DNA of 64,000 bases from Pomacea canaliculata (taxonomy: Eukaryota > Mollusca > Gastropoda > Architaenioglossa > Ampullariidae), in contig NC_037594.1 in NCBI RefSeq assembly GCF_003073045.1, positions 24,186,927-24,250,926 on the forward strand. Direction: 5' to 3'. The number at the start of each line of letters is the position of its first letter. The first letter of the stretch is position 1. A program made the translations under genes and the position numbers. The notes beneath the pieces were generated by a model. It had not been told where the DNA came from. It saw only the letters and a list, made by a program, of their open reading frames with translations, and searched no databases. Below are positions 1 through 60,420 of this stretch, piece by piece.

Positions 1-1437
1 GCTCCATAAGGCGTTGAACCACATCATACGGTCTGTTGCTCAGTCCAGGCATGCAGCAGAAGACTTCAAAGCGCCAGACATACCCAGACTTGCTTTAGCA
101 GAGCTCGTACAATTTGATTCCCCACTTGGTGGGCTTGTCCTTCATGTAGACCTTGAAGCCTAGTCGGCCTTTCCAGGGACACAAGGCCTCATCGATGCTG
201 ATATGCTGTTCTGGCATGTACATAGTCTGGAAGGTCTGGAAGATTAATCAAATTATCTGTTTTTTTGTGTACTGCAAAAGGGGCGTGGCACTCTTGTATT
301 CTGAATTCAGTCAATTATAAATCAGATGTTCCTCATAAGGTAGTTCTTTTAAGCACTACTTATAAATGGTGTTAAGTTACATACAAGAGATATTTCATTT
401 GTTATGAAATGACAAGCAATAATAAAATAATTACACTGACAGCGAGGGTGAGGCATGTAGTTATCAACAACACTGTAATGGTTTTGGATTTTAAAAATTA
501 GAGAACTGTGTCATCCATAAAATAACAATCCGACTATAAAAGTAAATAACATCTAAAAGATAAAAACCTCAAAAAATAAGTTTTAACAACTACTTACATG
601 GTTCAAGTGGTCTATGAATGGTCTCAACTCGTGCAGAGGATCAAAGCCAGGTTGCCCTTTTGGAACTGCTAAAGAATTATCATTCAAGTGAAGAAATTTA
701 AGAATGCTCATAAACCTTTCACGCTTCATTACCTTAGGAGCAAATGTCGTTTGAAGAAATGAACGTTTTGTCCAGTAATCAGTCAATCTTGGCTTCTGCA
801 AAACACTCATATGTAAAATAATAGCAAAAAAATCATACAACTCACAAACGCGTACAGGCTTCCATGTTTTTAGAAAAGACCTAGCTGGAATATCAATTTT
901 AGATTTTTTAACCTTATCTATTACCTGCTTTGCAAATAAATTTGTTTGACTTTTAATCTTTTTTATTTGATCTTTGTTTATAAAAAGATTAAAAAAATCG
1001 ATGGGCTTACAATCTTCCCAAGGGGGAAGATTTAGTGAGTCGCTCAAACCTGGCTTTGCGAGGAAGTTTGGTCGCATTGGAAAACCACTAAGGTTTTCAC
1101 ACCACTCGTTCATGAAATCTCCCTCTAAAGATGACGGAATATCCTCAACCTCGTTGTTTTCCTCGTTATTTGACGATTCTGATGCAGGATGCTCTTGATC
1201 TGAGTCGATTTCAATATCCTCATCTTCCTCCTCGATGCATGCTACTGTCACGTGCTCGTCTGAAAAAAGATTATTAGAAGTTAGATCATCTTCATCTTCC
1301 TCTAATACTACATTTTCCTCGGAGTCTGTAGATTGGGTGTCCTCGTTGTCCCATTCTTCCACCTCCAACTCCATTTCCTCTTCTGATTCTACCGAGAACA
1401 AGTCGCACGCTTTTTGAGCAGTGTGTCGTCCCGCCAT
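1..1437 (-). pseudogene. piggyBac transposase, partial and broken
   Basis: The first true ATG is at 1437 (MAGRHTAQKACDLF), inside a longer frame that opens at a TTG. About 110 acidic, low-complexity residues follow, then a conserved N-terminal domain with PPWEDCKPIDFFNLF and YWTKRSFLQTTFAPKVM. Exon 1 ends at 598 with the donor CAT|GTAAGT. The reading resumes at 235 after TTCCAG, giving FIDHLNH then TFQTMYMPEQ. The core motif SISIDEALCPWKGR-type segment is present as ISIDEALCPWKGRLGF, whose Asp matches the first catalytic Asp of piggyBac enzymes, and MKDKPTKWGIKLYEL follows. A TAA interrupts the frame just after that block, near 90. The rest is beyond the window. It is probably inactive, although one stop could also be a sequencing error. 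Confidence 0.85.
236..597 (-). other. Intron of the piggyBac transposase gene
   Basis: The donor is GTAAGT at 597-592 and the acceptor is TTCCAG ending at 236, both read on the minus strand. The phase is conserved (CAT|ACC) and the joined sequence restores a conserved piggyBac stretch. AT-rich, with no other content seen. Confidence 0.75.
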
Positions 1438-1692
1438 TTTTCCAGTGGAAAAGAACGAGTACTCTGGGAAATTGACGATAGTCAAAACAGAGTAGCCTCC
1501 CTTTAAAAGGGAAGTAGCTGTGTGCAGAAATGTCCAAGCTATCGTAACTAATCAATTTCTTTACTAAAGAAAAGCGCTGTAAACGCCAAAAAAATTAATA
1601 ATAATAAAAATAAATAAATAAAAATAAATAAAAACACGGTGGTTTTGTGCGCCCGCCGCGTGCAAGTGGACTGTTCGCGCGGGCGGGTTTAA

Positions 1693-2064: not shown

Positions 2065-2569
2065 CCCCAGCAGCAAAGGAATATTGGCTACAGGTGGGAA
2101 ACATGTCTTGAGTATCCGGGGGCGCCATGTGGCAAAAATGGCGTCCGACCCATAGCGAAAGTGAAACCGGGCCGTAACAACGGGGTCATGTCGGTTTTAC
2201 CTGTGAAACAAGCGTGGACGCTTCTCTCCCCCTTGTGACCGCTAGTCAACCCTGAGGCTCATGTGGTAACGTCCCATCTTTTTTTTTTTTTATATATCCC
2301 ACTATTTATATCTTCAGATTATTGTATTTTTAGGGATTTCGGCTATCCTGATTTACATATTTCTAAATCAAGACATGCCAAAATTCCTAAAAAATACCAA
2401 TATCAAATGGATTAATAAAATTTGTGTATTTGCAATAATTATATATATATAACAAGCAGCAAAAGAGTGCACAAAAGTGCAAAATGTTATAAAAAAACAA
2501 AACAAACATGATTTGTCATTTATTTGGCGTTTATTGAGGTAAACATAAGGATAAAAAGCAAACTAAAAA

Positions 2570-2900
2570 AATTTTTTTAATATAAAATTTTTTTAAAGCA
2601 TTGTCTCATTTGTATACATAACATTTATCATTTATCAAGGTAAAAATATTATCAACAAATAATAAAAAGATAAAAATAAGTGTTAAAAATATAAAAATTT
2701 TTTAAGCTAATAAACTATAAAAATAATGTTAAAAATAAAAAATTTTTTAAAGCATTGTCTTTTGTATTACATACAATTTATCATTCATCAAGTAAAATGT
2801 GGATTCATAAATAAGGATAAAAGCAAAACTGATAACAAAATTTTAAAAATATATATAATTTTTTTTAAAAGCATTGTCTGTTTGCATACATAAAAGATGT
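2570..2900. repeat. AT-rich tandem repeat, about 120-bp unit
   Basis: Units contain an A-rich or T-rich run, the block GCATTGTCT, and a block reading CATTTATCATTTATCAAGG. About 2.5 to 3 units are visible. The matching array in copy B is at 46778-47100. Confidence 0.6.
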
Positions 2901-3567
2901 TTCCTCTTGATTATTAAGGTGCAAACATTCGTATTTTAATTATATAGTTGTAGAACGATGCAAAACCATGTATCCATTGACAAACAATTAAAATTAAATT
3001 GCAGTTTCCTTAACACTAATTACATTTCCAAACGAAAAGGTTCAAAGATCTATGACAATATATCAATGATAAGTATGAACTGAATTGCTGTCAAAAAAGA
3101 GTGATGCTTTAATAGACATTTCCGAAAAAATAATCAAAGTCATGAAATTAACTATAAAAGGTTCTAGGTTGGATTGCAGCTTATGGTATTAACTACAATC
3201 TTTTAAAACAGATTAAATTTTAAATTGCACCTTTATCGCTAAGAAAAGGAAAACCATCAAACACATGTTTGAAACACAATTTGTTCAGAATTTTAGAAGG
3301 TATAGAAAAGAACTGTAAACATATAAAATGACATTCTGGAACTTTACACAACACATCTCTTATTGGATCGGGTGAAAACTATCCTCATTGATAAATTAAT
3401 GGGTTAGAAGTAAATAATAATCACAGCACAGTTTATATAATTATATACGATCCAGATTTAGTATCTGCAGGTTTATGTACAAGAATTTTACAACTGTAAC
3501 GGTAGAAAGTTGCACAGCTTTAACTTGTTCTCCACCCCAGAACAATTAACTGACGTATAGGCTGTCT

Positions 3568-6500
3568 TCAACCCTTTCCCTTCTGCATTCTCTTGATCCT
3601 AGTGCACCAGCTAACCAAGTTGATGCATGCAAGTTCAGCATCTGTAGCTTCAGGATAACTTTTTCTTGCAGCATCTAAAATAGAACAAATATAAAGAATA
3701 TGAGGTCTGCATAAAAAAGTAATCATTAATTGTAGTTACTGACCCTAAAATTACAGAATATAATGTGAAACAAAAAGAGGTGGCAAATTATTACTGATAT
3801 GTAACAGTGCATAAAATTTAAAGCCGTTATAAACAGAAAGGAACCTACAAGTGGAACTGCATTTGAATTTCAGTTAGAATTTCTATAGAGCAGAAAAACT
3901 CTGGAAATTCGTAATTTTCAAAAACAATCCCATACATGGAAACTGTAAAGATGTCATAAAATAGTTCATTTCTTAATTCCTTTCTACACAGTGTTAAGCT
4001 TTAAAGGACTACATCACTAGAAATTGCGAAACATGTGTCCATATTTTTATTTTGGTCCAATGTAATTTCAATCACAATAAAATGAGGTAGGGACAGTTCT
4101 CCAGGCGCCTATTTATCTTTGTCCTGTCATGTTTTTTTTTTCATGACTCATGAAAATTCTTGTCTGCACCTAGCAGAGTCAAGGTTAAGTTCATAACTAA
4201 AGATAAAGAAACAATCCAACAGTACCTATTTTATGACGGCATGTATTAATGTACCGTATACACACACAACCAGACAAGTCAATCAAACAACGAGAGTTTA
4301 AATCCTTACCCTGAACTGTTGTAAATGAAGGTGGTTCTTGCAGTCCCATTGAAGTTGTAAGATCAGGCAAACCAGTTGAAATAGCACAGATAAGAATGCC
4401 CCTCATACATGCCTTTAATGTGAAGCCCGAACGCATCACCCGATGGCATTCCTGAAAACAGACAAAAATAAATACACATCATTAAAAAAAAATTTGCAGT
4501 GGGCAACATATAATACCTGTTATGACAACTAGTATTTAAAAGACACCCCCCCCCAAAAAAAAAAGACTACAATTCAGGAAGTTTCATACAACAAGCAAAG
4601 TCGGGTACAGAAAAAATTTACTATCTCTCTAATCAATGCCACCATAACAATGCCTTTATTACTTTTTAGTACTGCAAACATGTCATTAGTTTTATACAAT
4701 GGATTTTGTATGGTATGAACCTTTAAAGGGAATCAGATAAAAAGATTTGACTCCTCCGTACTAACAAATAGAATAACACATACCAAGCATGTCCTTCCTT
4801 TTATGGGTCGTCTTCATCTCTCCCTCAAGACTACTCTACATTTCTGCTGATTGTTAAGGGGAACTGGAACCCCTCTGGCAGATTTCCCGTGTCATTTGCC
4901 TTCTGTTCTTGTTCTCCATCCATGTAACATCCTTTTAAGGTTGTTGTATCATTTCATCTCTTCCAAAGAGACAGTTGTGCATCCCAACTTTCTCTAGTTT
5001 ATTCTAACCTAAGAACACAATTAGCAGAAAACATGTAAAATACTGATCTTTGCTAGCTTTGCTATAGTTCACATGCCTGGAAAATACCATTAATTTTGGT
5101 ACTCTTTACATTTGTCATATCTATTTGATATGTGATCCATATTTGTTTCAAATTTTTTCCACTATGGCAAAAGGCTTGGGATTTTCCTCTTCCAGTTTAA
5201 CTCATAAAAAGCCTGTTCATAACTCTTGGCCAAGGGTAAGAAGAAAAAAAAGCTAAAATGATTATAAACAAAATGGCTTTAAATTACCTTCCAAGGGTTA
5301 TGGGTCTTTATGCTGGCAGGCTGAAAACCAGACAATGGAATCGGAGGCGCTGGGGTGTGAAGGCAAAGGTGAAACAGTCCTTTTTTGAAAGCTGCTACTT
5401 GGGGACACCCTTGAGATGGTGCACACTAGTGCAAAGAGTATGGCAATGGTGGTGGACATTGCTGCATAACTGAATGGTCAGCATATAGTGATTCCTCGGC
5501 ATCCTTCTCTCCTTCGCTGTTAGCTGTGCATCCCTGTGTCAAATGAATACATTTGCATAAACTTTTTTCAGCTTAGTACATTTAAAACTGTCAGCTGCTG
5601 ATAGGTTGTTAACATTTTTTTAAAGAACATTTTATTGTTATTGTACAAAACTTGTTTATCACTGTATGCTATTTTACCAGAAAGAGGACACAGCCTGTGT
5701 CCTACATGATGTCCACCAAAAAAAAATTCCCTAAAATTAAGCAGAGGAAATGAAAACGACCGAAATCTAATGGAGTTATCCGTATCCTTTTGGGTTGAGT
5801 GGGAGCATTTTTGTCACACTCTCCACCTCCGACATTTTTGTCCCTTGCAGATTCAGCTAGATTCTTGGTAGTTACCTGCATGGAAATAAATATAGAAGGC
5901 AAATAAGATTTCACAAATCAAGATCAAAGTATAATAATAACACTCATAGTGCAGCATCACAACAAAAGCTACACTATCTGTGGTGGTAATGACTGTGTTC
6001 AAACAGTTCAGGTATTACTTTTTCTCCTTCCTTAAATCTGCAGCACACAATAACATAGAAATCATTTGACATTAATGGTCACATGCTTCATAAATTTTCT
6101 TTCTGCACAAGGATTATGAATATTATGAATCAAAAAGTAATTGCACTTACTTAATGACTTGTGCAGGAAACTGGAAGCATAGGACATGAGGAATCAGCTT
6201 TATAGCTCTAATTAATGAAGCTTGCATCTGGTTCAATAGATTGTAGTGGGAAGTTGCACACCCTGTGGACCACTTTCATCTTAAAATGCCAGCAGCCAGC
6301 TATCTAGAATAACAGTAAAATAAATTATTGACCATTATGCAGTTATTATGATTTGTGTTGAAAAGACCATTAAGTTGTCTGAAATGATACTTCCAGTCAC
6401 AATCAGTTGTCAATGGCTATCTATATAAGTTTTTTTTTTGGTTCACCACTGGGAACACAATCCTTATGCTGTCTTCTTGACAAATATTCTTAATTAGCTG

Positions 6501-7066
6501 CTGCAGTGGAAGTTTGGTGTTTGAAAAAGTCGTTTAAGCTAGCCTAAAAAGTTATAAATTGAGAGGCAGAGTTAAGAGTCCAAAGGACCAAATCTGTCAA
6601 CATTATCTCAGCAATATGTGACAAAGCAAGTAAATTTTACACCAAAATCCTTTACCATACAAACTGCTTCTTGAACAAATAAACATGAAAGGTTATGAGC
6701 CTAATAATCAGCATAGTTCACACCACAGCCAGGACTTGCAAGACAAAAAAAAACCAAACCCACAATAATAAGAGAAAAAATATTATACTCTGCCCGAAGA
6801 AACCTGGCATTTTAACGCTATCGTACCAGTAAACGACGGAACTGTCGAAGCTCTGTTACGTTCCACTTTCGTAATCGCAATTTGAGGAAATTCTGACAGC
6901 TCCAAATTCTCTCCATTGCTAACGGCTAAAGAATTATCAAATGCAAGCGTTCAGAACTGCTGAGCACGATTTCTACCTCTGTCTGGAAAACTTGTGCATT
7001 TATTGCGTTAATGTGTACTCTTAATTTTTTTCTCTTAGAATGATATTCTGCATTAAATTTGGACAT
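3568..7066 (-). pseudogene. Spliced gene of unknown function inside copy A
   Basis: Several exons can be traced because the same blocks recur in copy B. They are: a basic N-terminus from ATG 7066 (MSKFNAEYHSKRKKLRV); a block near 6790-6900 with SEFPQIAITKVERNRAS; a block near 5760-5890 with TQPKRIRITP; a block near 5310-5535 with EGEKDAEESLYADHSVM; a charged, probably helical block near 4800-4980; a clean exon at 4310-4451 starting ECHRVMRSGFTLKACMRG; and a last exon at 3568-3674 starting DAARKSYPEATDAELACI and ending in TGA. The last two exons have canonical splice sites and matching phase. Blocks in the middle carry frameshifts. The layout (basic start, helical middle, small C-terminal domain) suggests a DNA-binding accessory protein, perhaps BEN-like at the end. 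I do not recognise the family. Confidence 0.5.
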
Positions 7067-7489
7067 TTCTGTAGTTAAAATCTCAATAACTATGTTAATA
7101 TAGAGTATAAAAATTATACGTACTGTTATCGAAGCGTCGAACACATGTATCAGTATAGAAATTGACCGCTTGAGAAGCTTTTCTGTTGGGAAAAGTGTAG
7201 ACTCACACATTTGAAAATGGCGGCTTTGCCTGCACGCATGTGGTCGTATGTAGCACGCCATGGCGAAGAGTCATTGCCATTGTTAGGGGTCACGACCCTA
7301 TATGTGGGCATGATCTCCCGCACTCTGGTTTCGCCTCGGCGAGCGTGGAACTTGGCTTATGTGCGCATGCGCTGACAGCGCCATGCCCCACGAGTCAAGC
7401 ATTGCGATAGATTGACCCCCTGTATCACAGTCGGATCAAGACAAACTTGGTGGACCCCTTGAGCTTATGGTTTCCGATGCTGCTAGGGT

Positions 7490-16207: not shown

Positions 16208-17302
16208 CTATGCGGTAATACTCTTCGACCTGCAGGAAAGAAGGTTCCGATACAATCTCGCGAGACGGGTGGCAGACTGATCGCGCAGCCACACCCGAAT
16301 CTTGCCGAGCGCCTTCATCTCCTGCCTAAAGCGCGATGAGCGAGAGTAGTAGACGACTATGTTGAGCGAGCTGTCGACGTAGGTGACGTAAAATGCGATG
16401 CTGGTGATAGTTAGATACATATACGAATACCGCCCAGAGGCAGAGAACTCGGGCACGCACAAACGAGCGACGGTCAAGACCGACATTGGGATCATGCAGA
16501 CGATGTACACGCACGACACCAGCACCAGCATGGAGGTCAATGCCACCTGGTGCTCCTGACGCTGGATGCTGGAGGAGCTGGCCTGCCTCCTCCACAACAT
16601 GGCGGCCCTCAGCCTGTACACCGTGATCAGGGTCGCGACACATACGCCCATCATGGTGGCCAAGGGCGTGACGATCATGAAAAAGACATCTGCGATCGCG
16701 TTGAACAGAGTCTTGTGGCTCAGCCACATCGAGGTCGGGACAAGCCCCCACTGAACCTCACCTGTCACGTTGTTCAAGAACATCACAGGTCGATTCTGGA
16801 AAAAATTGATGCTGAAGCCGAGTAAGGACGATGCAAAGAGGATGACTAACACCAGCGCCACCGTGCGGGTCCTGACGAGACTGTTGGCGCGCAAGGGAAG
16901 AACCACACACAGGCAGCGCTCCACGGCCACCAAGAGGCTGACGCTGCCGGACAGCGTGCGGAACGTGTGCATGACGCCCACGCTGGGCATCAGCAACCGG
17001 AAGTACAGCTCCTCCCCGCGGGTCTTGTCCGCCAGCTCCACGAAGGCCGCGAAGCTCAGCGGCAGGGAGGTGATGACGTAGCACAGGTCAGCCAGGGAGC
17101 GAGTGAACAGGCAAAGGTTCATACGATCTCGCAGCCCCTGGCGCATGAACACCAGGCAGCACAGACAGTTGGCCGGAAGTCCGGCGCAGGCTACCAGCGG
17201 CTTGCACACACAGTTGAGGACGGACAGCGTCCAGCGATACGCCTCTGGAGACAGGTCAGCAAGTGCACCTGGTGTGTCGTCAAAGCCTGTCAAACTACTC
17301 AT
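16208..17302 (-). CDS. Orphan class-A (rhodopsin-like) GPCR
   Basis: A single intact exon encodes 364 residues from ATG at 17302; the frame extends ten codons upstream but opens with TTG, so I chose the ATG. It is a seven-helix plasma-membrane receptor that signals through G proteins; the ligand is unknown. Visible marks by helix: TM1 near residues 40-60 with GLPANCLCCLVF, TM2 with SLADLCYVITSLPLSF (the conserved Asp), TM3 with LLVAVERCLCVVLPL (ERC in place of DRY), TM5 near 205-235, TM6 with SMLVLVSCVYIVCMIPMSVL, and TM7 with YVDSSLNIVVYYSRSSRF in place of NPxxY. A basic tail follows. The weak DRY and NPxxY versions are usual for the large lineage-specific orphan receptor families of gastropods (peptide-receptor-like or chemosensory). 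The GC content is clearly higher than its surroundings, as expected for a real coding exon. Confidence 0.9.
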   Translation of the reverse strand: MSSLTGFDDTPGALADLSPEAYRWTLSVLNCVCKPLVACAGLPANCLCCLVFMRQGLRDRMNLCLFTRSLADLCYVITSLPLSFAAFVELADKTRGEELYFRLLMPSVGVMHTFRTLSGSVSLLVAVERCLCVVLPLRANSLVRTRTVALVLVILFASSLLGFSINFFQNRPVMFLNNVTGEVQWGLVPTSMWLSHKTLFNAIADVFFMIVTPLATMMGVCVATLITVYRLRAAMLWRRQASSSSIQRQEHQVALTSMLVLVSCVYIVCMIPMSVLTVARLCVPEFSASGRYSYMYLTITSIAFYVTYVDSSLNIVVYYSRSSRFRQEMKALGKIRVWLRDQSATRLARLYRNLLSCRSKSITA

Positions 17303-20300
17303 AGCGTACAGGCTAACTAACACTAATGACAATTGAATAAGTCATATTATGTCATTCAGTTTAGATGGCGACGAACACTATTGTTTTAAAATAATAATTC
17401 AAATAAAGTTGGGCTTCTCACAACATCGCTGAAAGATCTCTGAACGCTCATCGTCTTTAGGTTTTCCCTGTAATTTCACCTGAAAAAAAAAACGGAAGGA
17501 GAGACATCAGTCTAGCGAAATTCAAAAATGTAGGAAAGTTTTCAATTTTTAAAATAAAAATTGTGCGCAGGGTTTATTAAAATGACAAGCTACCTCAACT
17601 GCCTATGGTTTCAGGTATATAAAATAAACCTGATGATTACTTATCAGCGTGATAAGGTCACCATGCCTCTAATCCCTTAAGACACTAACCCACTAACACC
17701 CAGACACAGGCACACAGAATACATCCATTGGATATATTGCTGAAACTTGGTTTCCAGGAAGGGCTAAGGGGTTTTTGAACATGGTGGATTAAGAATGCAC
17801 TTGAACTGAGTGCAGAGAGTGATTTAAGTCTCCCATGTTTAGGATAATATAGCCCTCCGTTCCCCCACAAGCTGATAAAGAAACGAACTGAGTGAGTGAG
17901 GACAGTGCTTATCAGTGTTTGTGAGCACCCAGCTAGGATTCTCTGCTATTCAGGTCGTTGTTTGAAAACCTCCAAATGCCTTCAGAGTTTTACACACCAA
18001 CAAAGTCTAGCCAGTGGAGGTGCAGGTGAATCACCAATCGTAGTTTAACAGTTTAATGTTCAAAAAGAGCTTTGATGGTCCCAGGAGTCTCACTGCAAGT
18101 TGTGGCAGGTATGTCCATCCGAAGTTTCTTTCTTTTTTTTTTTTTTTTTTTGCTGATAGCATCTAATGATGGATAGAATCACAATCAAAAGCAATAGTAG
18201 GAAAAGCTACTTTTATTAAAGCTGTCATAGTGCAAGTAAGATTACAATAATTTAACGCGGGGTCAACTATTTTTCTAGTCTAGGTCACAGCCTGCACTGA
18301 GAGCTGCCTGTACATAACATTTATTCGCACTCTAGTAAGATTCTATTATTTAGCATTTAATGTAATAATATCAAAACAGATTGGCCTAGTGAAAGTTTCG
18401 ATCAACCGTTCCGACAAAGAACTGTACATCCTGAAATAAAGAATTTAGCAGCAGCGGTTCGATTGTCTGTGTGAACAACATCAGTGTCTACTGAAAGATT
18501 CGGTTTCCTGTCCCGCTAAATCCTCCCTTAGAAATCCATACAACCTCTTCTTCTTTCTAATTTCCTCCAAACTTCCAGAGCTTGCAAGACGCGGAATGTT
18601 GTTATTGATTACACAAAGTTGTTGTTCACAATCTATGATGGAATGTGGAAGTTCGTTTTCTTCAGGTTTCTGGCACCACACAGAAAACCGTTTGTCTGTC
18701 CTTCAGCAACCAGTTGTCATCGCAATGCGAAACTCTCTGAATATTATTTTCTTACCTTTCTGAATAAGACACTTAAAAATTCCAGTAATGGCTTTGACTT
18801 TCATGTTTTTCGTACTCAGAAATTGCCCTTGATCCCGGTCTTAATTGTTATTAGCTTTCAAGGTGTGTTTCTACACCTCGCGGCTGTCGGCAACCTAGAC
18901 CCTCAGGCTCTCACTGCTTGACTTGATGGACATCAACAATCCTGTTCATCGACATGCTACGAATGTATGTTGCCATGACAGTCGAATGAGGTGCATAATT
19001 TATAGTTGTGTTCGGAAGATTCGTGACAGTCAAGAATTTTTTTTTAAATCGACCTCTCAGCAGCTTACACTTTGCTTTTTTGTCTTTAGAACGTGTTTAG
19101 AACGTATTTCTGCAACGGATATTTGACAGAAAATCAGTAGTTATCAAATATATATATCCCAGAGAAACTTCCTTCGCTCTTGTAATTAGCTTCGTTTTAA
19201 AATGAATATCATCCACAGCATTTTCCAACAAGTTTCGGACAGATTATCTGACATTTTGTGACATCACGTGCTTAAAAATAATTTTGCGTAAATCGTACTT
19301 TACTTACAACTAATATAAAATGATCCTTCGTAAATCGTAAATTCTGAATAATTAATGCACAAAATGAAATTAGATGATATTCGATATTAATATATCTTCA
19401 TTTCTTTTAATATATCTTCGTTTTTTTAAAGCTCTGTCGCCTCTTTATCCTAGCTTTATCCAATGCTATTGCTTGAACTTTTTTATTGTAGATGGCGCGC
19501 GGAAGCCAGTGAAACCCCAGAGTAAAAATTAGACCCTCGATCTTGTCCACATGTGACCAGCTCAGTCACGTGGTCGGCGTGTCAGGTCGCCTCCTCAGCT
19601 TTGTATTCTCTGTTTATGAGACACATTGCAGAGGGGGGCGCACTTGACTAATTGTCCTATTGGACTTAATTATGTGTGTGTCCTCTGTAGAAACATTTTT
19701 AATGAATGCTCTTAACTCCACCCCTTCCTCTCCCTCCACACACACAGTATGTTTCTGTAAATACACATCCGTCAACATCACTGAAACTTTGTCTGCACTT
19801 GCTCAGTAGAAGGTGCAGCTAGCGTCTGATTAATGAGATTGTCTCTGAGTTTGTTGACAGCGGAGGGAGGGAAGACAACATTAGCCGCGAATGTAGGTCA
19901 GTGTTGTGACGTCAGCTTGCAAATGGCGAGAAGTTTCGTCTCACTTCATATTGTGGGACAGTAGGTGCAGTCGACGCCTCGCAAGTATCACTCACGGCTC
20001 CCAGGTCAGCCTGACAACAACACTCGACGTTTGAAAACACTTCTCCTCGGTCAGCATGTCGACACGTCAGCACTCAGCAGTCTAACGCCAGCCTCACGCC
20101 AACTCATGTCGTCCAGGATGCGACAAAGACATCAAAGGTACTGAGTGTTCGGTATCTTGGGTCACAGTACACGTGAGGTCACGAGGTAGCCTGAGGTCAC
20201 ACGAACAAATGCTGTGTCTAATCGTGACCGTGAGACTGTGACTATCTCCGCCATTGTTTGTAGTGTCGAGGGTGCTGAAACTCGATCTGCACCAGGGCGC

Positions 20301-21473: not shown

Positions 21474-22817
21474 TATCCAATTCATTTTATTATATAATTA
21501 AATTCTTTATAAATTCATTCTAACTATACAATTTAATTTTATACAGGATATACAGTAATATATATATCTCTAGAGAAAGAACAGTATAAAAATTCTCCTC
21601 CTGCCATCCCATACTCTGAGCACGTGATCCAGCTTAAATAATAGTAAATCCCGTTTCGCTGGCTCAGTTTAAACTGTTTCGATATTACGTGTTCTCTATT
21701 TGACTTTAAATTGTCTGATGTAGCTATCAGACTGGCAGGGAGCGGCGATGGCAAGTTAATCGCGTTTTCTTCCGGGTCCTCTTGAGAGATAACACATCTC
21801 TTGACAGACGATTTATCAAATCGCAGGACAGACGACCAAAGTAACATCGACGTGTGCAGGTGTCAGAAAGGTCTTTTGTCTCTTGTGTACTTCAGACTAC
21901 TAGCGGGTTTTCGGGTATAGTAATTTTAATTTTACCTCCAAAACATCATTGAAAAGCTAAATTGTTGCTACTTTGAAATCACTAGGCACACAGTTGATAA
22001 TAAGCTACCGCCTACACAAAGTTGTTTGCAGTCACCAGAGACTGTTGTTATCATGACCACAGGAAGAACTACATTTACATGAGGGTCACAGAAGTGTTTG
22101 TAGTCGAGCCTAGGTTGTGGCTGTCCCAGATTTCCTAAAGCAAAATGGATATTTTTGGTCATTAATCTATGACAAAGTATTTTGTTATTGACTTGTTCAT
22201 CTCTCTCCCTTACACTCTCACACACACAAAGCTTACACAAGAATCGGTGTTCTTACGATAATCTGTGCTTACGAAAAATTTCATGTTACTAATAATTCGT
22301 GTAGTTTGCGAAGATGATTCATGTTATCAATCATTTGCATGCGTATTGTAGTTTGCCTCCAAATACTTCTAAAGTACTCTTTATTTAGTAATTTCTATGA
22401 GGAAATGTGTTGACTTCAATTGACGGCGTGATTAACCGCTAATTGCTCAGCTGTGCAATGTCCTGTTCAAATCACTTCCTACTTTTGTGGCAGCTTCGCT
22501 CATTGGACAAGTAGTGAGGGGTACATCTGAACATGATGTTCAGAGGCCAAGAAAAACAGCGAGAGATTAAGATGTCCATCCACCACAGCGTTGGATCTTA
22601 CCTGCGACGACTTACACCTGGGTGTTCATGACTGGTCTTCCATCAGAGTTGAAGAAGGGCTGATGGTGTACAACGTGGGCGACAGACTCCACCAACCTTG
22701 ACCTACCGTCGTGCGCATTCGTGGGTCAGCTGTTCAGAGGACTGTGTTCACATTCGGTCAGCCACACAGATGTGAAAGTTGAAGGACTTTGAGATTGTTT
22801 GATGCTGCACGTACTTG
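21474..22817. other. Upstream region of TLR1
   Basis: No gene was recognised. Just before the coding start, around 22760-22770, CAGCCACACAG could be an acceptor of a 5' UTR exon. Confidence 0.3.
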
Positions 22818-25800
22818 ATGACAATGAGTGTCGGATCCTTCGGCGCGAGCGTTCTGTGGTATGTGCGTGTCCTGGGAGTCATACTCCTGTGTCGTCACCA
22901 GTTGCATGTGTCGAGCGAGTGTTTGATGAACGCGTCCACCTCGCTCACCTCGAAGAATTCGAGTGATTTTCTGATTGCAAACGCGTCAGTCCCTCTTAGG
23001 GATCTGCTGCAGCAGCTGGTCCACTCAGTAACAAGTGGAGGCAAGCTAGTGGACCAAGTGCATCTGGACCTATCGCGAAAAGGCATAAAAGACTGCGACC
23101 TGCCCCTAGTTGCAAATATCACAAATATCGTAGTGTTGGACATGTCTGATAATGAGCTAGAGAACTTGACAGAGAATGTTCTGTCCAACTTCCCAAATGT
23201 CTGGCATGTGAACTTAGCTTTCAACACTATATCTGATATTTCTGATAAGTCTTTGCCATATAGTGTGAAGCTGCTAAACATTTCAGGAAACAGACTTCGT
23301 CGTCTTGAGCGAGGAATGTTTCACAACTCCTTACGGAACCTCACAGCGTCTCGAAACCGTATTTTTGAACTTCTGCCCGGGTCTCTTCCTACAGCACTAA
23401 CAGATCTGGATTTATCATTTAATGAAATCCGCATTCTGCTGAATGGGGTGTTCGCGAATCTCTACGCCTTAAGATCGCTTAATCTGTCTCACAATCAACT
23501 TGCAGTCATCCAGCCGCACGCCTTCCATTGGGGGATGACTTTGAGAACTGCTGACCTGTCTTACAACTCGCTGACGTCATACGAACCGTGGCCGTACCTG
23601 TTCACTTACGATCGAAATGTTATAAGGGTGGATCTCCGGTACAACAACATCTCACGCTTTACGAACGACATGAACATGACGGTGATCATGGAGAATAAGT
23701 ACACGAGGGTGGATCTGCGTCACAACGCCTTGCGAAGTGTGACGTTGCAGGATCTGAGCATCTACTTCAACGGACAGCTGCCCAATGACTTCCAGGTGGA
23801 GAACTTGGAGCTGGACATAGAGGAGAACCCCTGGGTGTGCGACTGTTCACTTTACGGATTGGTCTCACTGTACAGCACGAGCTTTATGCGAATTCTTTCG
23901 CGTGTGAACTCTCTACTCACGTGCCAGAATCCTCCTACACTTCGCGGCAAAACGTTTGGCTTTCTGATAGACAATCCAGACTCGCTGACGTGTCACTTGA
24001 CACACGAGTGTCCTCCAGGCTGCTCGTGCCAGGACAGACCTCATCGAGGCTACGTGGAAGTGTACTGCGATCGCAATCAGCAAGTTTATGCTCACCTGCC
24101 CGCAGCCTTGCCCTCTGACCGACTCCTGTTTCTTAACCTCTCCGGTCACCAGCTTCAAGCTCTCGACCCAACCGTCCCGTACGTATCCCGTTGTATGGAT
24201 TGGACGTCAGCCGGAACCACTTGCAGGAAGTGACGTCAGAGTTCCTGGACCAGGCCCGTGATCTCGTTGTGCTGGACGTCGGGCACAACCAACTAACCTC
24301 ACTTCCTCCGCAGGTGCGCAAGCTCTTGCTGCAACACCTGCATGTGGCAGGAAACCCCCTGCAATGCTCCTGTAGCTTCGTTTGGTTCGGGGAGTGGCTT
24401 CGTTCGTGGGCCGCCAACGTCTCCACCACAACGACTAACTCCAGGAAGTCGTCGTCGTCGTTACTGAGTGACGTCGCTGGTGTCGTGGCGGACGAAAGCA
24501 AGCTGCCGAGTGACATGGAGTCGCTGACGTGCCAGCAGCCAGGAGGCGGGCTCATGATCGTCATGGATATGACAGACAAGAGTCTAAGATGCGGGCACTT
24601 GGCCCAGGCTGTCGTCGCTGGTGTCTGCTGCATGGTGCTGCTGGTGCTGTGCATTGTTGTCGCAGGCTGGCGCAAGAGATACGAACTAAAAGTCTGGCTT
24701 CACTTTCGGACGTGGGGTCGCTGCTGCGGCAAAGGTTTGTGGGCCCTTTCTGTTTTTATGATTCAGATACCAGCTCCTGCCGGTAAAAAAATTATCTTTC
24801 TTACAAATAGCCATCATTGTTTTGTTTATATTCTTAATATTAATATTGTATTTCCATATCTAAATTTTTATCACACAAATAATCACATTAATGCTGCTTA
24901 TTATTTTATACTGACATCTGCAACTGTAAAATGTTTATTGTCTGAAAAGAGAGACAGTCGGCGCATTTGCTTAAAGGCTAGTTGCCGTGGTGACGAGGGG
25001 GATCATGACCACTGACCGAGTGTCGGTAAAGATTGTGTCACAGGGAGGGGGAATGGTGGTAGAGATAAACAGTAGCAAAAGTTGGAATGTTTACGATAGT
25101 ACATTAATACGATTAGACAGCAGAAGTTATGGTTAGTACTATCAAGGAAAAGGTATCAAGACGAAGGCGATGATGATTAGGAGAAGGAAGAAGTTGGGGA
25201 TGGCAAGGAGAAGTCATGATACAAGTTGAGCGGACGTAAAAAGAAAAGGTACAATAGCACAGGTAATGATGGTAACAATGACACTACCCTTCAGATGAAA
25301 AATTATCTGCGTATCCTCCCTTTGAAACAGACGAAGGTCCATGGTCGGCGACAATCAGCATCCCAGAAGGTTCAACGTGTATATATCGATGGATGAAGAG
25401 GATGTAGAAGCAGTGGCTTGGGTGCTCCATGTGCTGCTGCCGTTTCTGGAAGGGAGAACCACGCCCTTGAGGGTGTACCTTCCACTGAGGCAAGAAGCCC
25501 TTGGGGAGAGCAAGGCCAATGTAAGGACCTTTCTTTCTGTCGATCTTTCTTCCTAAAGCCAATGGAACTTTTAATCTTACCTTTTATGAAATATGTGACC
25601 AGCTGCTTTCGACTGATAGTTCTGTTGCATTACATTCAAACCGATGTCTTGAGCTAGTATGGAGCCAGTACAAACTTTTTTCCAATACAGAGACTAAATC
25701 TAAAATTAATAGTTTGTCTGAAAAATAAAATGGCTGTTGTATAACCAATTTTTTTGTGTCAAGGCTCGTGCGGACGCCATTGTCGACAGTCACAACATGC

Positions 25801-40640: not shown

Positions 40641-42169
40641 GTTCTGTGCTTTTCAAATGAGTGTCACTTTTCGTGTTTAGCTTTGATGCAACACTTTTCC
40701 AGTTATAATTTCTCATTTGATTATCATGTAATGTGTTATCATATAATAAATTTTCATTTGATTTTACTAATTCATGGTAGAAAACAAGTGTGCTTCATTG
40801 TGTACATGATTATCAGGTAAATCAGGATTTTTTGGTTTTTAACGGTCACAGTGAAAAAAAAAAAACCATTTGTAAGGGCGTGTAAGTTTTTTTATTTAGT
40901 ACTAAAATCAAGACAGTGACAATATCCTTTATTCAGTAGGGTCGTACTAATAACCGATACTGGGAGAGGTGAGGAGTCTCCTGAGACATTCCTTGCTGTT
41001 CTTGCTTCTTTGTAGGGGTGGCACATTGCTGGGTATTGGAGATCTCGGAGAGAGTGTTTACTGAAAATAAATATTAATGAATTATGACCAATATATGGGC
41101 ATGGAAAACCCAAATATGTCTAGCCTGTATGCCCATGATAACTGCTCTTGCTGGAACAGTGCATGAATACAAAAAGTTCCTAACTGAGCTTTTTACATAT
41201 CTAGACTCATCTCTTTGTGGCAGAACAGACTTTTGTCACTACCCTCCCCAAATACCTGTAGGAAAAGAAGCATTAAACAATTAATACTTGAACTGTCAAA
41301 TGTTTTACTAAATATGGCTATACTAAAATTATGCTTTACTTGCTTATTTATATTATAAATGGTTCACTCACCTTTTACACTCCCCAGTGATGATGATGTC
41401 AGTGGTGGGATGAACAAGGGTCTCCTTCCAAGATTTTAGCCATTCTGGAATAGAAATTCCATCGTGATCTTCCCTGGCCCGTTTTCTTGTTAAAATCTAA
41501 TATAGCTTTGTACCTGTTGGGATACAAGTACCAAACATGCTTACATATCATTATGTATCCAGACTAATTTCACACAGCTACCAAAAAATCTCTACTAAAG
41601 CTTGGTTGATACTGGTGGGGTCTTGTTTACAGGTTAAATGAATGAATTGTGGTAACAAATAAATAAGAACTTGCACAACCTTAAAAACCTGCGATGTTTT
41701 GTTTCTCAGATCTATGGAAAAATGTTGCACTCTAAGACAGAAAGCCCAATGATTTTGTAGGAACTCACCATATTTTCATATTGCTCCATTTTTTTTCTCA
41801 AGTGCTGCTGGAGCAAAGTGGCATCCTGAGGCTGCATTTCCGAAGCAATCCTCTTCCATACCTCTATTTTCAAGTTGGAATTGCAAATTGTTCCTTATGT
41901 TCGGCATAAGTGTCCATGAGGAAAAGTATGCCCCCTTGGTCCATTGATTTCCCACATTCATTTCTGTTAAAATATGAAATCAATTAATCAGGAATAAAAA
42001 CAGGAAAATAAAAACCAGAATAACATAGTGATATGTTTAGTAAATGCAACAGTATCAGATTCAAACTTAAAGCTTTGATTCTAAACATCAAAGAATAGGG
42101 TAGTTGTACTATTTTATTCTGTTGGAAGGATAGTTCAATAATGTGCACAATATTTTCATAGCTGGGTTA

Positions 42170-45100
42170 CCCTAGCAGCATCGGAAACCATAAGCTCAAG
42201 GGGTCCACCAAGTTTGTCTTGATCCGACTGTGATACAGGGGGTCAATCTATCGCAATGCTTGACTCGTCTTGCATGGCGCTGTCAGCGCATAAGTCAAGC
42301 TCCACGCTCGCCGAGGCGAAAACAGAGTGCGGGAGATCATGCCCACATATAGGGTCGTGACCCCTAACAATGGCAATGACTCTTCGCCATGGCGTGCTAC
42401 ATACGACCACATGCGTGCAGGCAAAGCCGCCATTTTCAAATGTGTGAGTCTACACTTTTCCCAACAGAAAAGCTTCTCAAGCGGTCAATTTCTATACTGA
42501 TACATGTGTTCGACGCTTCGATAACAGTACGTATAATTTTTATACTCTATATTAACATAGTTATTGAGATTTTAACTACAGAAATGTCCAAATTTAACGC
42601 AGAATATCATTCTAAGAGAAAAAAGATTAAGAGTACACATTAACGCAATAAATGCACAAGTTTTCCAGACACAGGTAGAAATCGTGCTCAGCAGTTCTGA
42701 ACGCTTGCATTTGATAATTCTTTAGCCGTTAGCAATGGAGAGAATTTGGAGCTGTCAGAATTTCCTCAAATTGCGATTACGAAAGTGGAACGTAACAGAG
42801 CTTCGACAGTTCCGTCTGTTTACTGGTACGATAGCGTTAAAATGCCAGGTTTCTTCGGGCAGTATAATATTTTTTTCTCTTATTTATTGTGGGTTTGTTT
42901 TTTTTTTGTCTTGCAAGTCCTGGGCTGTGTGTGAACTATGCTGATTATTAGGCTCATAACCTTTCATGTTTATTTGTTCAAGAAGCAGTGTTTGTATGGT
43001 AAAGGATTTTTTGGTGTAAAATGTACTTGCTTTGTCACATATTGCTGATAATGTTGACAGATTTGGTCCTTTGGACTCTTAACTCTGCTCTCAATTTTAT
43101 ATTTTTTTTAGGCTAGCTTAAACGACTTTTTCAAACACCAAACTTTCCACTGCAGCAGCTAATTAAGAATATTTGTCAAAGAGCAGCATAAGGATTGTGT
43201 TCCCAGTGGTGAACCAAAAAAAAACTTATATAGATAGCCCATTGACAACTGATTGTGACTGGAAGTATCATTTCAGACAACTTTAATGGTCTTTTTCAAC
43301 AACAAATCATAATAACTGCATAATGGTCAATAATTTATTTTACTGTTATTCTAGATAGCTGGCTGCTGGCATTTTAAGATGAAAGTGGTCACAGGGTGTG
43401 CAACTTCCCACTACAATCTATTGAACCAGATGCAAGCTTCATTAATTAGAGCTATAAAGCTGATTCCTCATGTCCTATGCTTCCAGTTCTCCTGCACAAG
43501 TCATTAAGTAAGTGCAATTTACTTTTTGATTCATAATATTCATAATCCTTGTGCAGAAAGAAAATTTATGAAGCATGTGACCATTAATGGTCAAAATGAC
43601 TTCTATGTTATTGTGTGCTGCAGATTTAAGGAAGAGAAAAAGATAATACCTGAACTGTTTAAACACAGTCATTACACCACAGATAGTGTAGCTTTTGTTG
43701 TGATGCTGCACTATAAGAGTGTGTTATTATTATACTTTTGATCTTGATTTGTGAAATCTTATTTGCCTTCTATATTTATTTCCATGCAGGTAACTACCAA
43801 GAATCTAGCTGAATCTGCAAGGGACAAAAATGTCGGAGGTGGAGAGTGATGACAAAAATGCTCCCACTCAACCAAAAAGGATACGGATAACTCCGATTAG
43901 ATTTCGGTCTGTTTTTTTCCTCTGCTTAATTTTAGGGAATTTTTTTTGGTGGACATCATGTAGGGACACAAGGCTGTGTCCTCTTTCTGGTAAAATAGCA
44001 TACAGTGATAAACAAGTTTTGTACAATAACAATAAAATGTTCTTTAAAAAAATTTTAACAACCTATCAGCAGCTGACAGTTTAAATGTACTAAGCTGAAA
44101 AAAGTTTATGCAAATGTATTCATTTGACACAGGGATGCACAGCTAACAGCGAAGGAGAGAAGGATGCCGAGGAATCACTATATGCTGACCATTCAGTTAT
44201 GCAGCAATGTCCACCACCATTGCCATACTCTTTGCCACTAGTGGTTGGCACCATCTCAAGGGTGTCCCAAGTAGCAGCTTTCAAAAAGGACTGTTTCACC
44301 TTTGCCTTCACACCCCCAGCGCCTTCCGATTCCATTGTCTGGTTTTCAGCCTGCCAGCATAAAGACCCATAACCCCTTGGAAGGTAATTTAAAGCCATTT
44401 TGTTTATATCATTTTAGCTTTTTTTCTTCTTACCCTTGGCCAAGAGTTATGACATGCTTTTATGAGTTAAACTGGAAGCGGAAAATCCCAGCCTTTTGCC
44501 ATAGTGAAAAAATTTGAAACAAATATGGATCACATATCAGATAGATATGACAAATGGTAAAGATTAACCAAAATTAATGGTATTTTCCAGGCATTGTGAA
44601 CTATAGCAAAGCTAGAAAAGATCATTATTTTACATGTTTTCTGCTATTGTGTTCTTAGGTTAGAACTAAACTAGAGAAAGTTGGGATGCAACAACTGTCT
44701 CTTCTGGAAGAGATGAAGAATGATACAAACAACCTTAAAAGGATGTTTACATGGATGAGGGAACAAGAACAGGAAAGGCAAATGACACGGGAAATCTGCC
44801 AGAGGGGTTCCAGTCTCGCTTAACAATCAGCAGAAGATGTAGAGAGTCTTGAGGGAGATATGAAGACAGACCCATAAAAAAGGACATGCTTGGTATGTGC
44901 TTTATTCTGATTTGTTAGTAGGAGGAGTCAAATCTTTTTATCTGATTCCCTTTAAAGGTTTCCATACCATACCATTCATTGTATAAAACTAATGACATGT
45001 TTGCAGTACTAAAAAGTAATAAAGGCATTGTTATGGTGGCATTGATTAGAGCAGATAGTAAATTTTCTGTACCCACTTTTGCTTGGTTGTATGAAACTTC

Positions 45101-47554
45101 CTGAATTGTTGCTGTCTTTTTTTTTGGGGGGGGGTGTCTTTAAATACTAGTTGTCATAACAGGTATTATAATGTTGCCCACTGCAATTTTTTTTAAATGA
45201 TGTGTATTTATTTTTGTCTGTTTTCAGGAATGCCATTCGGTGATGCGTCGGGCTTCACATTAAAGCATGTAGTGAGGGGCATTCTATCTGTGCTATTTTC
45301 AACTGAGTTGGCCTGATCTTACAACTTCAATGGGACTCAAGAACCACCCCTTCATTTACAAACAGTTCAGGGTAAGGATTTAAATATTTGACTCTGTGTG
45401 TGTGTGTGTATACGGTACATTAATACATGCCTGTCATAAAATAGGACTGTTTGGATTGTTTCTTTATCTTTTAGTTATGAACCTTAACCTTTGACTCTGC
45501 TAGGTGCAGACAAGAATTTCATTAAAAAAAAAAACATGACAGGAAGATAAATCAGGCCTGGAGAACTGTCCCTACCTCATTTTATTGTGATTGAATTACA
45601 TTGCCAAAATAAAATATGGACACATGTTTACGCAATTTCTAGTGACTGTAGTCCTTTAATCAGCTGGTTAACACTGTGTAGAAAGGAATTAAAATGACAG
45701 TTTATAGACATCTTTACAGTTCCCATGTATTGGGATTGTTTTTGAAATTAGAATTTCCAGAGTTTTTCTGCCTATAGAAATTCTAACTGAAATTCAATTC
45801 AGTTCCACTTGTAGTTCCTTTCTGTTTATAACGCTTTAAATTTTTATGCCACTTTACATATCAGTATAATTTGCTTGTACCTCTTTTTGTTTCACATTAT
45901 ATTCTGGATTTTAGGGTCAGTAACCTACAATTAAGTGATTACTTTTTTATGCAGACCTCATATTCTTATATTTGTTCTATTTTTAGATGCTGCAAGAAAA
46001 AGTTATCCTGAAGCTACGGATGCTGACTTGCATGCATCAACTTGGTTAGCTGGTGCTAGGGATCAAGAGAATGGCAGAAGGGAAAGGGTTGAGCACAGCC
46101 TATACGTCAGTTAATTGTTCTGGGGTGGAGGACAAGTAAAGCTGTGCAACTTTCTACCTACAGTTGTAAAATTCTTGTACATAAACCTGCATATACTAAA
46201 TCTGGATTTATATAATTATATAAAACTGTGCTGTGATTATTATTTACTCTAACCCATTAATTTATCAATGAGGATATTTTCACCCGATCCAATAAGAGAT
46301 GTGTTGTGGTAAATTCAGAATCATTTATATGTTTACAGTTCTTTTCTAATACCTTCTAAAATTCTTGAACATAATTGTGTTTCAAACATGTGTTTGATGG
46401 TTTCCTTTTCTTAGTGATAAAGGTGCAATTTAAAATTTTAATCTGTTTTAAAAGATTGTAGTTAATACCATAAGCTGCAATCCAACCTAGAACCTTTTAT
46501 AGTTAATTTCATGACTTTGATTTATTTTTAGAAATGTCTATTAAAGCATCACTCTTTTTTGACAGCAATTCAGTTCATACTTATCATTTGATATATTGTC
46601 ATAGATCTTTGAACCTTTTCTTTGGGAAAATGTAATTAGTGTTAAGGAAACTGCAATTTAATTTTAATTGTTTTGTCAATGGATACATGGTTTTGCATCG
46701 TTCTACAACTTATAATTAAATAACGAATGTTGCATTAATATATCAAGAGGAAACATCTTTTATGTATGCAAACAGACAATGCTTTAAAAAAAATTTTATA
46801 TATTTTTAAAATTATTTTTTTTTATCAGTTTGCTTTTTATCCTTATTTATGATAACATTTTTACCTTGATAAATGATAAATTGTTTATGTATACAAATGA
46901 GACAATGCTTTAAAAAAAATTGTATATTTTTAACATTATTTTTTTATTAGTTTGCTTTTTATCCCTATTTGTGATAATATTTTTACCTTGATAAATGATA
47001 AATTGTTTATGTATACAAATGAGACAATGCTTTAAAAAAAAATTTATATTAAAAAAAATTTTTTTAGTTTGCTTTTTATCCTTATTTTACCTCAATAAAC
47101 GCCAATAAATAACAAATCATGTTTGTTTTTTTATAACATTTTGCACTTTTGTGCACTCTTTTGCTGCTTGTTATATATATATAATTATTGCAAAATACAC
47201 AATTTATTAATCCATTTGATATTGGTATTTTTTAGGAATTTTGGCATGTCTTGATTTAGAAATATGTAAATCAGGATATGCCGAAATCCCTAAAAATACC
47301 AATAATCTGAAGATATAAATAGTGGGATATATAAAAAAAAAAAGATGGGACGTACCCATGAGCCATCAGGGTTGACTAGTGGTCACAAGGGGGAGAGAAG
47401 CGTCCCACGCTTGTTTCACAGGTAAAACCGACATGACCCCGTTGTTACGGCCCGGTTTCACTTTCGCTATGGGTCGGACGCCATTTTGCCACATGGCCCC
47501 CGGATACTCAAGACATGTCCCCCACCTGTAGCCAATATTCCTTTGCTGCTGGGG
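42170..47554 (+). mobile_element. Copy B of the unclassified 5.4-kb TIR element
   Basis: Reverse-complement partner of 2065-7489. The ends are CCCTAGCAGC at 42170 and GCTGCTGGGG at 47554, and TA lies on each side (42168-42169 and 47555-47556). It is nested in an intron of the Harbinger Myb/SANT gene, so it arrived after that element. The same exon blocks as in copy A are present: ATG 42582 (MSKFNAEYHSKRKK), SEFPQIAITKVERNRAS near 42750-42800, TQPKRIRITP near 43870, ANSEGEKDAEESLYADHSVM near 44135-44200, a helical block with LSLLEEMKNDTNNLKRM near 44700-44770, and DAARKSYPEATDADLHAS near 45985-46040. It is more damaged than copy A in the C-terminal exons. Confidence 0.78.
46778..47100. repeat. 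About 122-bp AT-rich tandem repeat in copy B
   Basis: Nearly three units share CAATGCTTTAAAAAAAA, AGTTTGCTTTTTATCC and ACCTTGATAAATGATAAA. Same array as in copy A. Confidence 0.75.
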
Positions 47555-59900: not shown

Positions 59901-60420
59901 TGAACAGTGATGCTAAAAAGATACTGCCATTGCTCGTAGGCCGTCAGTAAGTTATAAGAAAGGTCCACCATTTTGACAGTGGACATTCCTTGTCGGAAGG
60001 CGCCCACCTCGATTCTCGCTATTTTATTGTGAGAGAAATTTAGCTTTTCAAGGCAGCATGCCTCGGAAAACGTTTTGTTTTTCAACACCGTCAAATCGTT
60101 GTGAGAGAAATCAAGTTCCTTCAGTTGTGGCAGGTACGAAAAGTTTACACTCTCTAGACTGCTGAGGTTGTTGTAAGAAAGATTTAGCACAAGATTTGCA
60201 CCAAGGGGATGTCAAAGAAATATGTTGGCAGGAAGGAGAGGTCATTATGCGAAAGGTCAACGCTGGAACAGTTCAAAGAACGAATTGATGCTCTTACAGA
60301 GTCAGTCGTGGCGTTGGCGTCAGTTAGCAACTTGCTTCTGAAGTTGCAGAAGGCAGCGTCTGCAGACCTCAAGCTAATAAACCCAAATCCAATCAGAGCT
60401 AAGATTGCAGCCCAGAACAT
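56965..60420 (-). pseudogene. Toll-like receptor 3 of this cluster, copy of TLR2 with several lesions
   Basis: Exons correspond to 58742-60420, 58227-58428 and 56965-57767, with all splice sites kept. ATG 60420 and the signal peptide are intact, and most of the leucine-rich repeats, both cysteine clusters, the membrane helix and the TIR boxes read as in TLR2. Compared with TLR2 there are single-base or short indels near 60190, 59788, 59478, 59060-59095, 58415, 57505 and 57187, some gains and some losses. Several fall in the extracellular part and one near the TIR C-terminus. Either it is a young pseudogene or this stretch is poorly polished; the number and mix favour a pseudogene. Confidence 0.8.

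What the first reader, a model, noticed from the sequence alone, without database searches (positions are those of the whole stretch)
2065..7489. A 5.4-kb TIR element with a spliced gene and no visible transposase
Two copies in one window share both ends (CCCYAGCAGC) and at least six exon blocks of one gene with a basic N-terminus, a helical middle and a small C-terminal domain. I find no DDE-like, piggyBac-like or THAP-like sequence. Either the gene itself is an unfamiliar transposase, or the element is mobilised in trans and carries an accessory gene. This is the best candidate here for something undescribed.
Basis: partly seen in the sequence, partly recalled or inferred. Interest (0 to 1): 0.8.

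Follow-up and report, generated by a model that had tools for sequence, protein, structure and literature searches.

The report
Jumping element carrying a DNA-binder gene
Two closely similar copies of a jumping DNA element in an animal genome carry an intron-containing gene that probably makes a DNA-binding protein of a catalogued but little-studied family, and no visible enzyme for jumping, so the element is probably moved by a helper encoded elsewhere.

Summary
Window 2065-7488 and 42170-47554 are two inverted copies of one 5.4-kb unit. Homology stops at the same two ends, and 14 of the terminal 17 bases are inverted repeats. [quoted passage not shown] That match needs frame joins between the copies (strict joins 16.7-22.0 bits, looser ones up to 25.9, cut-off 25), and the longest stop-free readings of the key exon lie in another frame; I rate it about 0.8. 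No transposase family appeared in the nine frames scanned. Neither copy has a clear target-site duplication, so the mobilising superfamily is unknown. A/B differences are indel-led, unlike five other duplicate pairs in the window, which suggests unpolished sequence. A stop and a frame slip inside the domain are shared, so the gene is probably defective here. Best reading: a non-autonomous, trans-mobilised TIR transposon carrying a DUF4806/BEN-type gene as passenger or accessory. This could explain why DUF4806 genes are enriched in some lineages (Hydra, a beetle). More copies from the source genome, which was not available, would decide.

The parts
2065..7489 (-). element copy A (gene on the minus strand); base 7489 is shared by both copies but may be a chance match outside the TIR
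   Evidence: A/B homology limits
42169..47554 (+). element copy B (gene on the plus strand)
7472..7488 (-). copy A, terminal inverted repeat on the promoter side of the gene, CCCTAGCAGCATCGGAA
2065..2081 (+). copy A, terminal inverted repeat on the far side, CCCCAGCAGCAAAGGAA
42170..42186 (+). copy B, terminal inverted repeat, promoter side
47538..47554 (-). copy B, terminal inverted repeat, far side
7207..7400 (-). possible first exon / GC-rich promoter side of copy A; a donor-like GTGAGT follows 7207; the start is not determined
   Evidence: string found in both copies; GC 0.54 in the first 300 bases
6789..6950 (-). exon block E1; start approximate; the donor differs between the copies
6151..6303 (-). 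exon block E2
   Evidence: acceptor and donor strings in both copies; open mosaic of 51 aa
6019..6037 (-). exon block E3 (short; donor string in A only)
5761..5875 (-). exon block E4, basic stretch (...TQPKRIRITP)
5288..5533 (-). exon block E5, proline-rich, ending PIPLSGFQPASIKTHNPWK
4784..5008 (-). exon block E7 (no E6 is used), stretch that looks helical by eye, then the start of the DUF4806 match (FQFPLT, SAEDVESLE, KDMLG)
4310..4451 (-). exon block E8, core of the DUF4806 match; in that frame it holds a TGA that both copies share
3568..3674 (-). exon block E9 with the stop codon (DAARKSYPEATDA...RIKRMQKGKG*); lies beyond the matched part of the Pfam model
44659..44892 (+). copy B, counterpart of E7
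45228..45371 (+). copy B, counterpart of E8

Best explanation
A non-autonomous, probably recently active TIR DNA transposon that carries an intron-containing transcription unit for a DUF4806 (BEN-type DNA-binding) protein and no transposase. Shown: two insertions with the same ends, a terminal inverted repeat at both, splice-like block boundaries, a DUF4806-like C-terminus (by frame-joined composites), and no transposase family in the nine frames scanned. Inferred: the ends are recognised by a transposase encoded by another element; the unit moves as DNA, since introns appear to be kept; the DUF4806 protein, when intact, bound DNA either as an accessory to the transposon (its ends or chromatin) or simply as a captured host gene's product. 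In the copies seen here the gene is probably already defective.
For: The same limits of homology in two unlike flanks. TIR at fixed position, 26 of 3,000,000 random pairs as good. Splice-like strings, 12 of 16 in both copies. DUF4806 was the best family in 10 of 14 C-terminal composites scanned: 0 of 3, 3 of 3 (biased, see against), 2 of 2, 1 of 1, 4 of 5. None of nine decoys gave DUF4806; their best E-value for any family was 0.029. The E7 and E8 pieces SAEDVESLEGEMKTTHKRKDML and MPFGDASGFTLKHVVRGILSVLFSTELA*SYNFNGTQEPPLHLQTVQ are true A/B mosaics and join in frame across the predicted splice. No Pfam family at E below 0.1 in nine read-through frames.
Against: No target-site duplication in either copy, also not when the flanks of A and B are swapped as an inversion would do (by inspection). 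The DUF4806 match needs frame joins chosen by eye: strict A/B mosaics score 17.1, 16.7, 22.0 and 21.7 bits, below the curated 25; looser piece-wise composites score 24.5 and 25.9 and 23.8 (one search shows that its tail is not a mosaic). E8 alone gives nothing. The scores (27.0, 36.3, 36.2 bits) include letters guided by my memory of the family and should not be counted. The longest stop-free reading of E8 is in another frame; none of the fully open E8 mosaics keeps both GFTLK and YNFNG, and the A-only reading of E7-E9 gave no DUF4806 match. The decoys were longest open mosaics from random places, not pieces picked frame by frame, and one contained part of the real E9, so they control my choice of frames only in part. 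No further copy was found, though none of these collections holds animal genomes.
Confidence: 0.6

Rival explanations
1. The DUF4806 gene is a standing second gene of a transposon family, as the Myb/SANT gene is in PIF/Harbinger: autonomous relatives with the same ends carry DUF4806 plus a transposase, and these copies have lost the transposase. (A refinement of the best explanation, not exclusive of it.)
For: Two-gene layouts with a separate DNA-binding protein are usual in PIF/Harbinger and NuwaI (passages of PMC4482050). The gene ends about 3.9 kb into the element and the last 1.5 kb shows only short open stretches, where a lost gene could have been. DUF4806 is enriched in Hydra together with transposase domains (passages of PMC7642931).
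Against: No autonomous relative could be looked for. No remnant of a transposase was seen.
Confidence: 0.25
2. A plain captured host gene (Pack-type passenger): a DNA transposon acquired a whole host DUF4806 gene with its introns and promoter; the protein plays no part in transposition. (Also a refinement of the best explanation.)
For: Introns apparently kept, GC-rich end with a donor-like site. The gene has a TGA and a frame slip in its domain in both copies, as expected of cargo under no selection.
Against: No single-copy host parent gene could be searched for. A transposon-encoded gene in a trans-mobilised lineage would decay in the same way.
Confidence: 0.33
3. The gene product is itself a new kind of transposase.
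For: It is the only gene seen in a mobile unit, and the N-terminal blocks match nothing in Pfam.
Against: The only recognisable domain is a DNA-binding type; E4-E9 joined give only 286 aa; no conserved acidic triad could be assessed with two copies.
Confidence: 0.06
4. Not a transposon: two segmental duplicates of a gene whose ends happen to look inverted.
For: No target-site duplication; the window has other duplications.
Against: Homology stops at a 14-of-17 inverted match at both sides, and the copies are inverted in unlike flanks.
Confidence: 0.06

Closest known systems
DUF4806 domain proteins (Pfam PF16064; described as a BEN subtype)
   Same: C-terminal blocks match positions 3-70 of the 90-position model in order, across the predicted E7/E8 junction
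   Different: here the gene sits inside a TIR-bounded repeated unit and is frame-broken; the last exon lies beyond the matched part of the model
Fungal DNA transposons that carry TET/JBP dioxygenase genes (PMC12730594, abstract and outline read)
   Same: DNA transposons carrying a gene of DNA/chromatin function besides the transposase
   Different: those belong to named transposon lineages; here no transposase was found and the cargo family is different
PIF/Harbinger, with a Myb/SANT DNA-binding second gene (passages of PMC4482050)
   Same: a separate DNA-binding protein encoded in the element
   Different: no DDE gene seen; first TIR base C, where A or G is usual; no TWA duplication
Spy elements of the PHIS superfamily (passages of PMC4482050)
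   Same: insertion without target-site duplication
   Different: no AAATTT target at either insertion; no DDE gene seen
piggyBac
   Same: termini beginning CCC or CCY (recalled), and a piggyBac-type ORF stands at 583-1551, next to copy A
   Different: no TTAA at the ends of either copy

Membership tests
DUF4806 (PF16064) | profile match above the curated cut-off of 25 bits | tested here: inconclusive
   25.9 and 24.5 bits for composites whose letters come from single frames of A or B; strict mosaics 16.7-22.0 bits; no match without frame joins or for the three composites; the scores of 27-36 bits are biased by guided letters
BEN domain | BEN fold | not testable with these tools
   taken from PMC11075544 (passage), which cites Pan 2023 (not held); no solved-structure match by sequence; I did not try a fold, since a joined composite is not the window's own protein
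DNA transposon with TIRs | inverted repeats at the limits of homology of independent copies | tested here: met
DNA transposon with TIRs | target-site duplication (usual, not universal) | tested here: not met
   by inspection of flanks: A CCA/AGA, B TTA/TAT (gene orientation); flank swap tried too
Tc1/mariner | TA on both sides | tested here: inconclusive
   B has TA on both sides, A has CA and AG
piggyBac | TTAA duplication | tested here: not met
Spy | insertion within AAATTT without duplication, DDE gene | tested here: not met
   flanks; no DDE family; definition from a passage of PMC4482050
PIF/Harbinger | TWA duplication and a DDE gene | tested here: not met
   flanks
Helitron / Helentron | HUH Rep and helicase; no terminal inverted repeats of this kind (recalled) | tested here: not met
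   inverted ends; no family in the nine frames
any catalogued repeat family | ends or body matching a repeat library | not testable with these tools
   no repeat library and no animal genome is held

The most novel reading that the evidence does not exclude
DUF4806/BEN-type genes are spread in animals as standing accessory genes of a TIR transposon group: the protein binds the transposon's own ends or chromatin and works with a transposase supplied in trans. This would explain why DUF4806 is enriched in some lineages only, such as Hydra and a beetle, and why zebrafish-specific copies sit in the unusual, repeat-distinct Region-2 of chromosome 4.
Probability: 0.22. Interest if true: 0.68.

Novelty: new variant of a known kind. 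Interest (0 to 1): 0.45.

Why it matters
DUF4806 is a 'domain of unknown function' by name and is unevenly enriched between lineages. A mobile unit that carries such a gene gives that pattern a simple, testable cause and adds a case of a transposon carrying a DNA-binding gene. In the searches made here (DUF4806 with transposon, 3 papers; DUF4806 alone, 4 papers; BEN domain / DUF4806 / transposable element, 21 papers; BEN domain with transposase and inverted repeat, 2 papers; PF16064 or IPR032071, 1 paper) no listed title or start of abstract reports a DUF4806-bearing transposon. Of the 4 papers that name DUF4806 I saw the passage in 3. The library holds open-licence papers only, so this is weak evidence of absence.

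Tried and rejected
Own-genome search by ends: no genome held. Both 20-base ends in viral contigs and the promoter-side end in genome contigs: 0 matches. DUF4806 composites: viral contigs, 2 pattern stretches, none a relative; genome contigs, 46 pattern stretches, none a relative; phages, no match; plasmids, one hit at E = 2 to a bacterial record, taken as chance. piggyBac-type ORF against viral contigs: 2 pattern stretches, none a relative. Solved structures by sequence: none. The printed ends as a text search: 65 papers hold one of the strings, 20 listed, none about transposons by its title. Subterminal GGGTC motif: 6 in the two end stretches against a mean of 1.1 in shuffles, 0 of 500 as many, but chosen after looking; over all 5-mers the best shared motif (7) is within the shuffle range (mean 5.4, max 10), so not claimed. 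Tandem repeats in A: none by TRF, although BLAST shows weak internal repeats in the AT-rich part near 2540-2890. hAT-like unit near 30-35 kb as helper: its inverted repeats differ from the element's. Rfam and tRNA scans of the window: nothing. A bacterial promoter scan of 36 bases was of no use. Papers on bivalve transposons (PMC10294476, passages) gave nothing on this element.

Changes on checking: one search was run to check which composites are true A/B mosaics; one is not. With that, and the fact that the longest open reading of E8 lies in another frame, I lowered DUF4806 from 0.85 to 0.8 and the best explanation from 0.62 to 0.6.
Full report
What is there. The window is very probably from an animal: no prokaryote genome is held for it, and it holds an LRR ORF (22803-24233), a rhodopsin-type receptor ORF and a TIR-domain match that is below its cut-off (49359-50189). 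The species was not identified. Copies A (2065-7489) and B (42169-47554) are one unit in opposite orientation, 93.1% identical over 5547 columns with 98 mismatches and 183 gap openings. Homology ends abruptly at CCCTAGCAGC on the promoter side and CCCCAGCAGC on the other. The 17-base form of the end is found at these four places only, even with three mismatches allowed. With the position fixed by the homology limits, 14 of 17 bases pair; 26 of 3,000,000 random position pairs do as well. A free search over the ends would not stand out from shuffles.

Quality of the sequence. Five other duplicate pairs of at least 250 bases in the window have more mismatches than gap openings: 146/17, 47/10, 59/14, 17/7 and 18/9. 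The A/B pair is the reverse (98/183), and its differences are clustered. The first 500 bases on the promoter side carry 7 substitutions and 2 gap runs, the middle many more; the far end is not as clean. I infer unpolished long-read sequence in a repeat that short reads could not be placed in. If so, the copies are younger than 93% suggests and many reading-frame breaks that differ between copies are not real. This is inference. It also means that the two copies cannot be used for dN/dS.

The gene. On the minus strand of A and plus strand of B there are blocks bounded by AG and GT; of 16 splice-site strings that I picked, 12 occur in both copies. Since the copies are near-identical, this is not independent proof. 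Choosing A or B at each difference opens most of the nine stretches tried, but not the second part of E7, where the longest reading is 26 aa. In order they give a basic stretch (E4), a proline-rich block (E5), a block that looks helical by eye (E7, not computed) and a C-terminal part in E7-E9. In the frame that fits the domain, two lesions are shared by both copies: a TGA in E8, and a one-base slip between FQFPLT and SAEDVESLE in E7. The lineage seen here therefore probably does not make an intact protein, unless assembly error is shared.

The family. My first guess, DUF4806, came from memory and was then tested. Fourteen C-terminal composites were scanned against Pfam: 0 of 3, 3 of 3, 2 of 2, 1 of 1 and 4 of 5 returned DUF4806 as best family, 10 of 14. 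One search is biased because I had written in letters of neither copy. One search uses letters of A or B frames only, with joins chosen by eye: E = 3.4e-5 and 1.3e-5, 24.5 and 25.9 bits, cut-off 25, within positions 3-70 of 90. Stricter composites give E = 0.0068 and 0.0091, 2.1e-4 and 2.6e-4; a fourth (5.7e-5) has a tail that is not an A/B mosaic, and E8 alone gives nothing. Nine decoys made of longest open mosaics from random places gave no DUF4806 and at best E = 0.029 for another family; they do not fully mimic joins picked by eye.

Against the assignment: the longest stop-free reading of E8 (54 aa) is in another frame after GFTLK, no fully open E8 mosaic keeps both GFTLK and YNFNG, and the A-only composite matched nothing of the kind. 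For it: the match is colinear over about 70 positions, returns the same family in different composites, and crosses a predicted splice junction in frame. I put it at about 0.8. [quoted passage not shown] the paper it cites is not held.

No transposase. Nine read-through frames (three of the gene strand of A, three of B, three of the other strand of A) gave no family at E below 0.1. The other strand of B was not scanned. The same nine frames also missed DUF4806, so a gene split into short, frame-broken exons can escape this test; a DDE core in one or two large exons should not.

Insertion. In gene orientation the flanks are CCA|element|AGA for A and TTA|element|TAT for B. B could be a TA duplication; A has none. 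Exchange of flanks by inversion between the two copies does not restore one either. So the element is inserted without duplication, or the assembly has joined different copies inside this repeat, or the duplications have decayed. I cannot choose. AAATTT (Spy), TTAA and TWA are not met by either copy as they stand.

How it most likely works. Shown: a repeated unit with TIRs, block boundaries of an intron-containing gene, and a DUF4806-like C-terminus. Inferred: moved as DNA by a transposase from another element that recognises the ends. Between passive capture and an accessory role I lean slightly to capture because of the apparent introns and promoter-like end, but two-gene transposons with a separate DNA-binding protein are well known (PMC4482050, passages), and fungal transposons with TET/JBP cargo (PMC12730594, abstract and outline) show that such cargo can be kept. 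DUF4806 counts in Hydra (69 and 54 against 6, 0, 1, 0 and 0 in five other cnidarians, table passage of PMC7642931) stand beside enriched transposase domains. A beetle gene set is enriched in DUF4806 (PMC13270666 passage), and four zebrafish-specific genes of chromosome 4 Region-2 bear it (PMC11075544 passage). That fits transposon carriage but is only an association.

Verdict. The claim of an undescribed gene is weakened by the DUF4806 match. What remains new is the carriage of such a gene by a TIR element, of moderate interest until more copies are seen.

Noticed in passing
583-1551 (-): piggyBac-type transposase fragment (PF13843, E=1.2e-21) about 500 bases from the left end of copy A; no inverted repeat like the element's ends was seen in 1-2100.
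   Followed up: partly
22803-25015 (+), 49359-53308 (-), 57110-60211 (-): Receptor-like genes: LRR matches at 22803-24233 and a sub-threshold TIR_2 match at 49359-50189; the other ORFs were judged by eye. The two latter clusters are duplicates (93.7% over 2991 columns); overlapping ORFs suggest frame breaks.
   Followed up: partly
30095-35147: A unit with 42-base inverted repeats (86% complementary) around ORFs at 31552-34469 that look hAT-like by eye; three of these ORFs gave no Pfam match.
   Followed up: partly
16208-17341 (-): Open reading frame of 377 aa matching a rhodopsin-type receptor (PF00001, E=6.6e-11).
   Followed up: no
7200-7400 and 2100-2180: Both ends of the element hold AAAATGGCG/CGCCATTTT, and copy A has GCGCATGCGC; these resemble YY1 and NRF1 sites (recalled, not tested), and copy B lacks the latter through an 8-base difference.
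   Followed up: partly
2065-7489 against 42169-47554: Differences between the copies are indel-led (98 mismatches, 183 gap openings), unlike the five other duplicate pairs listed; looks like unpolished repeat sequence.
   Followed up: partly
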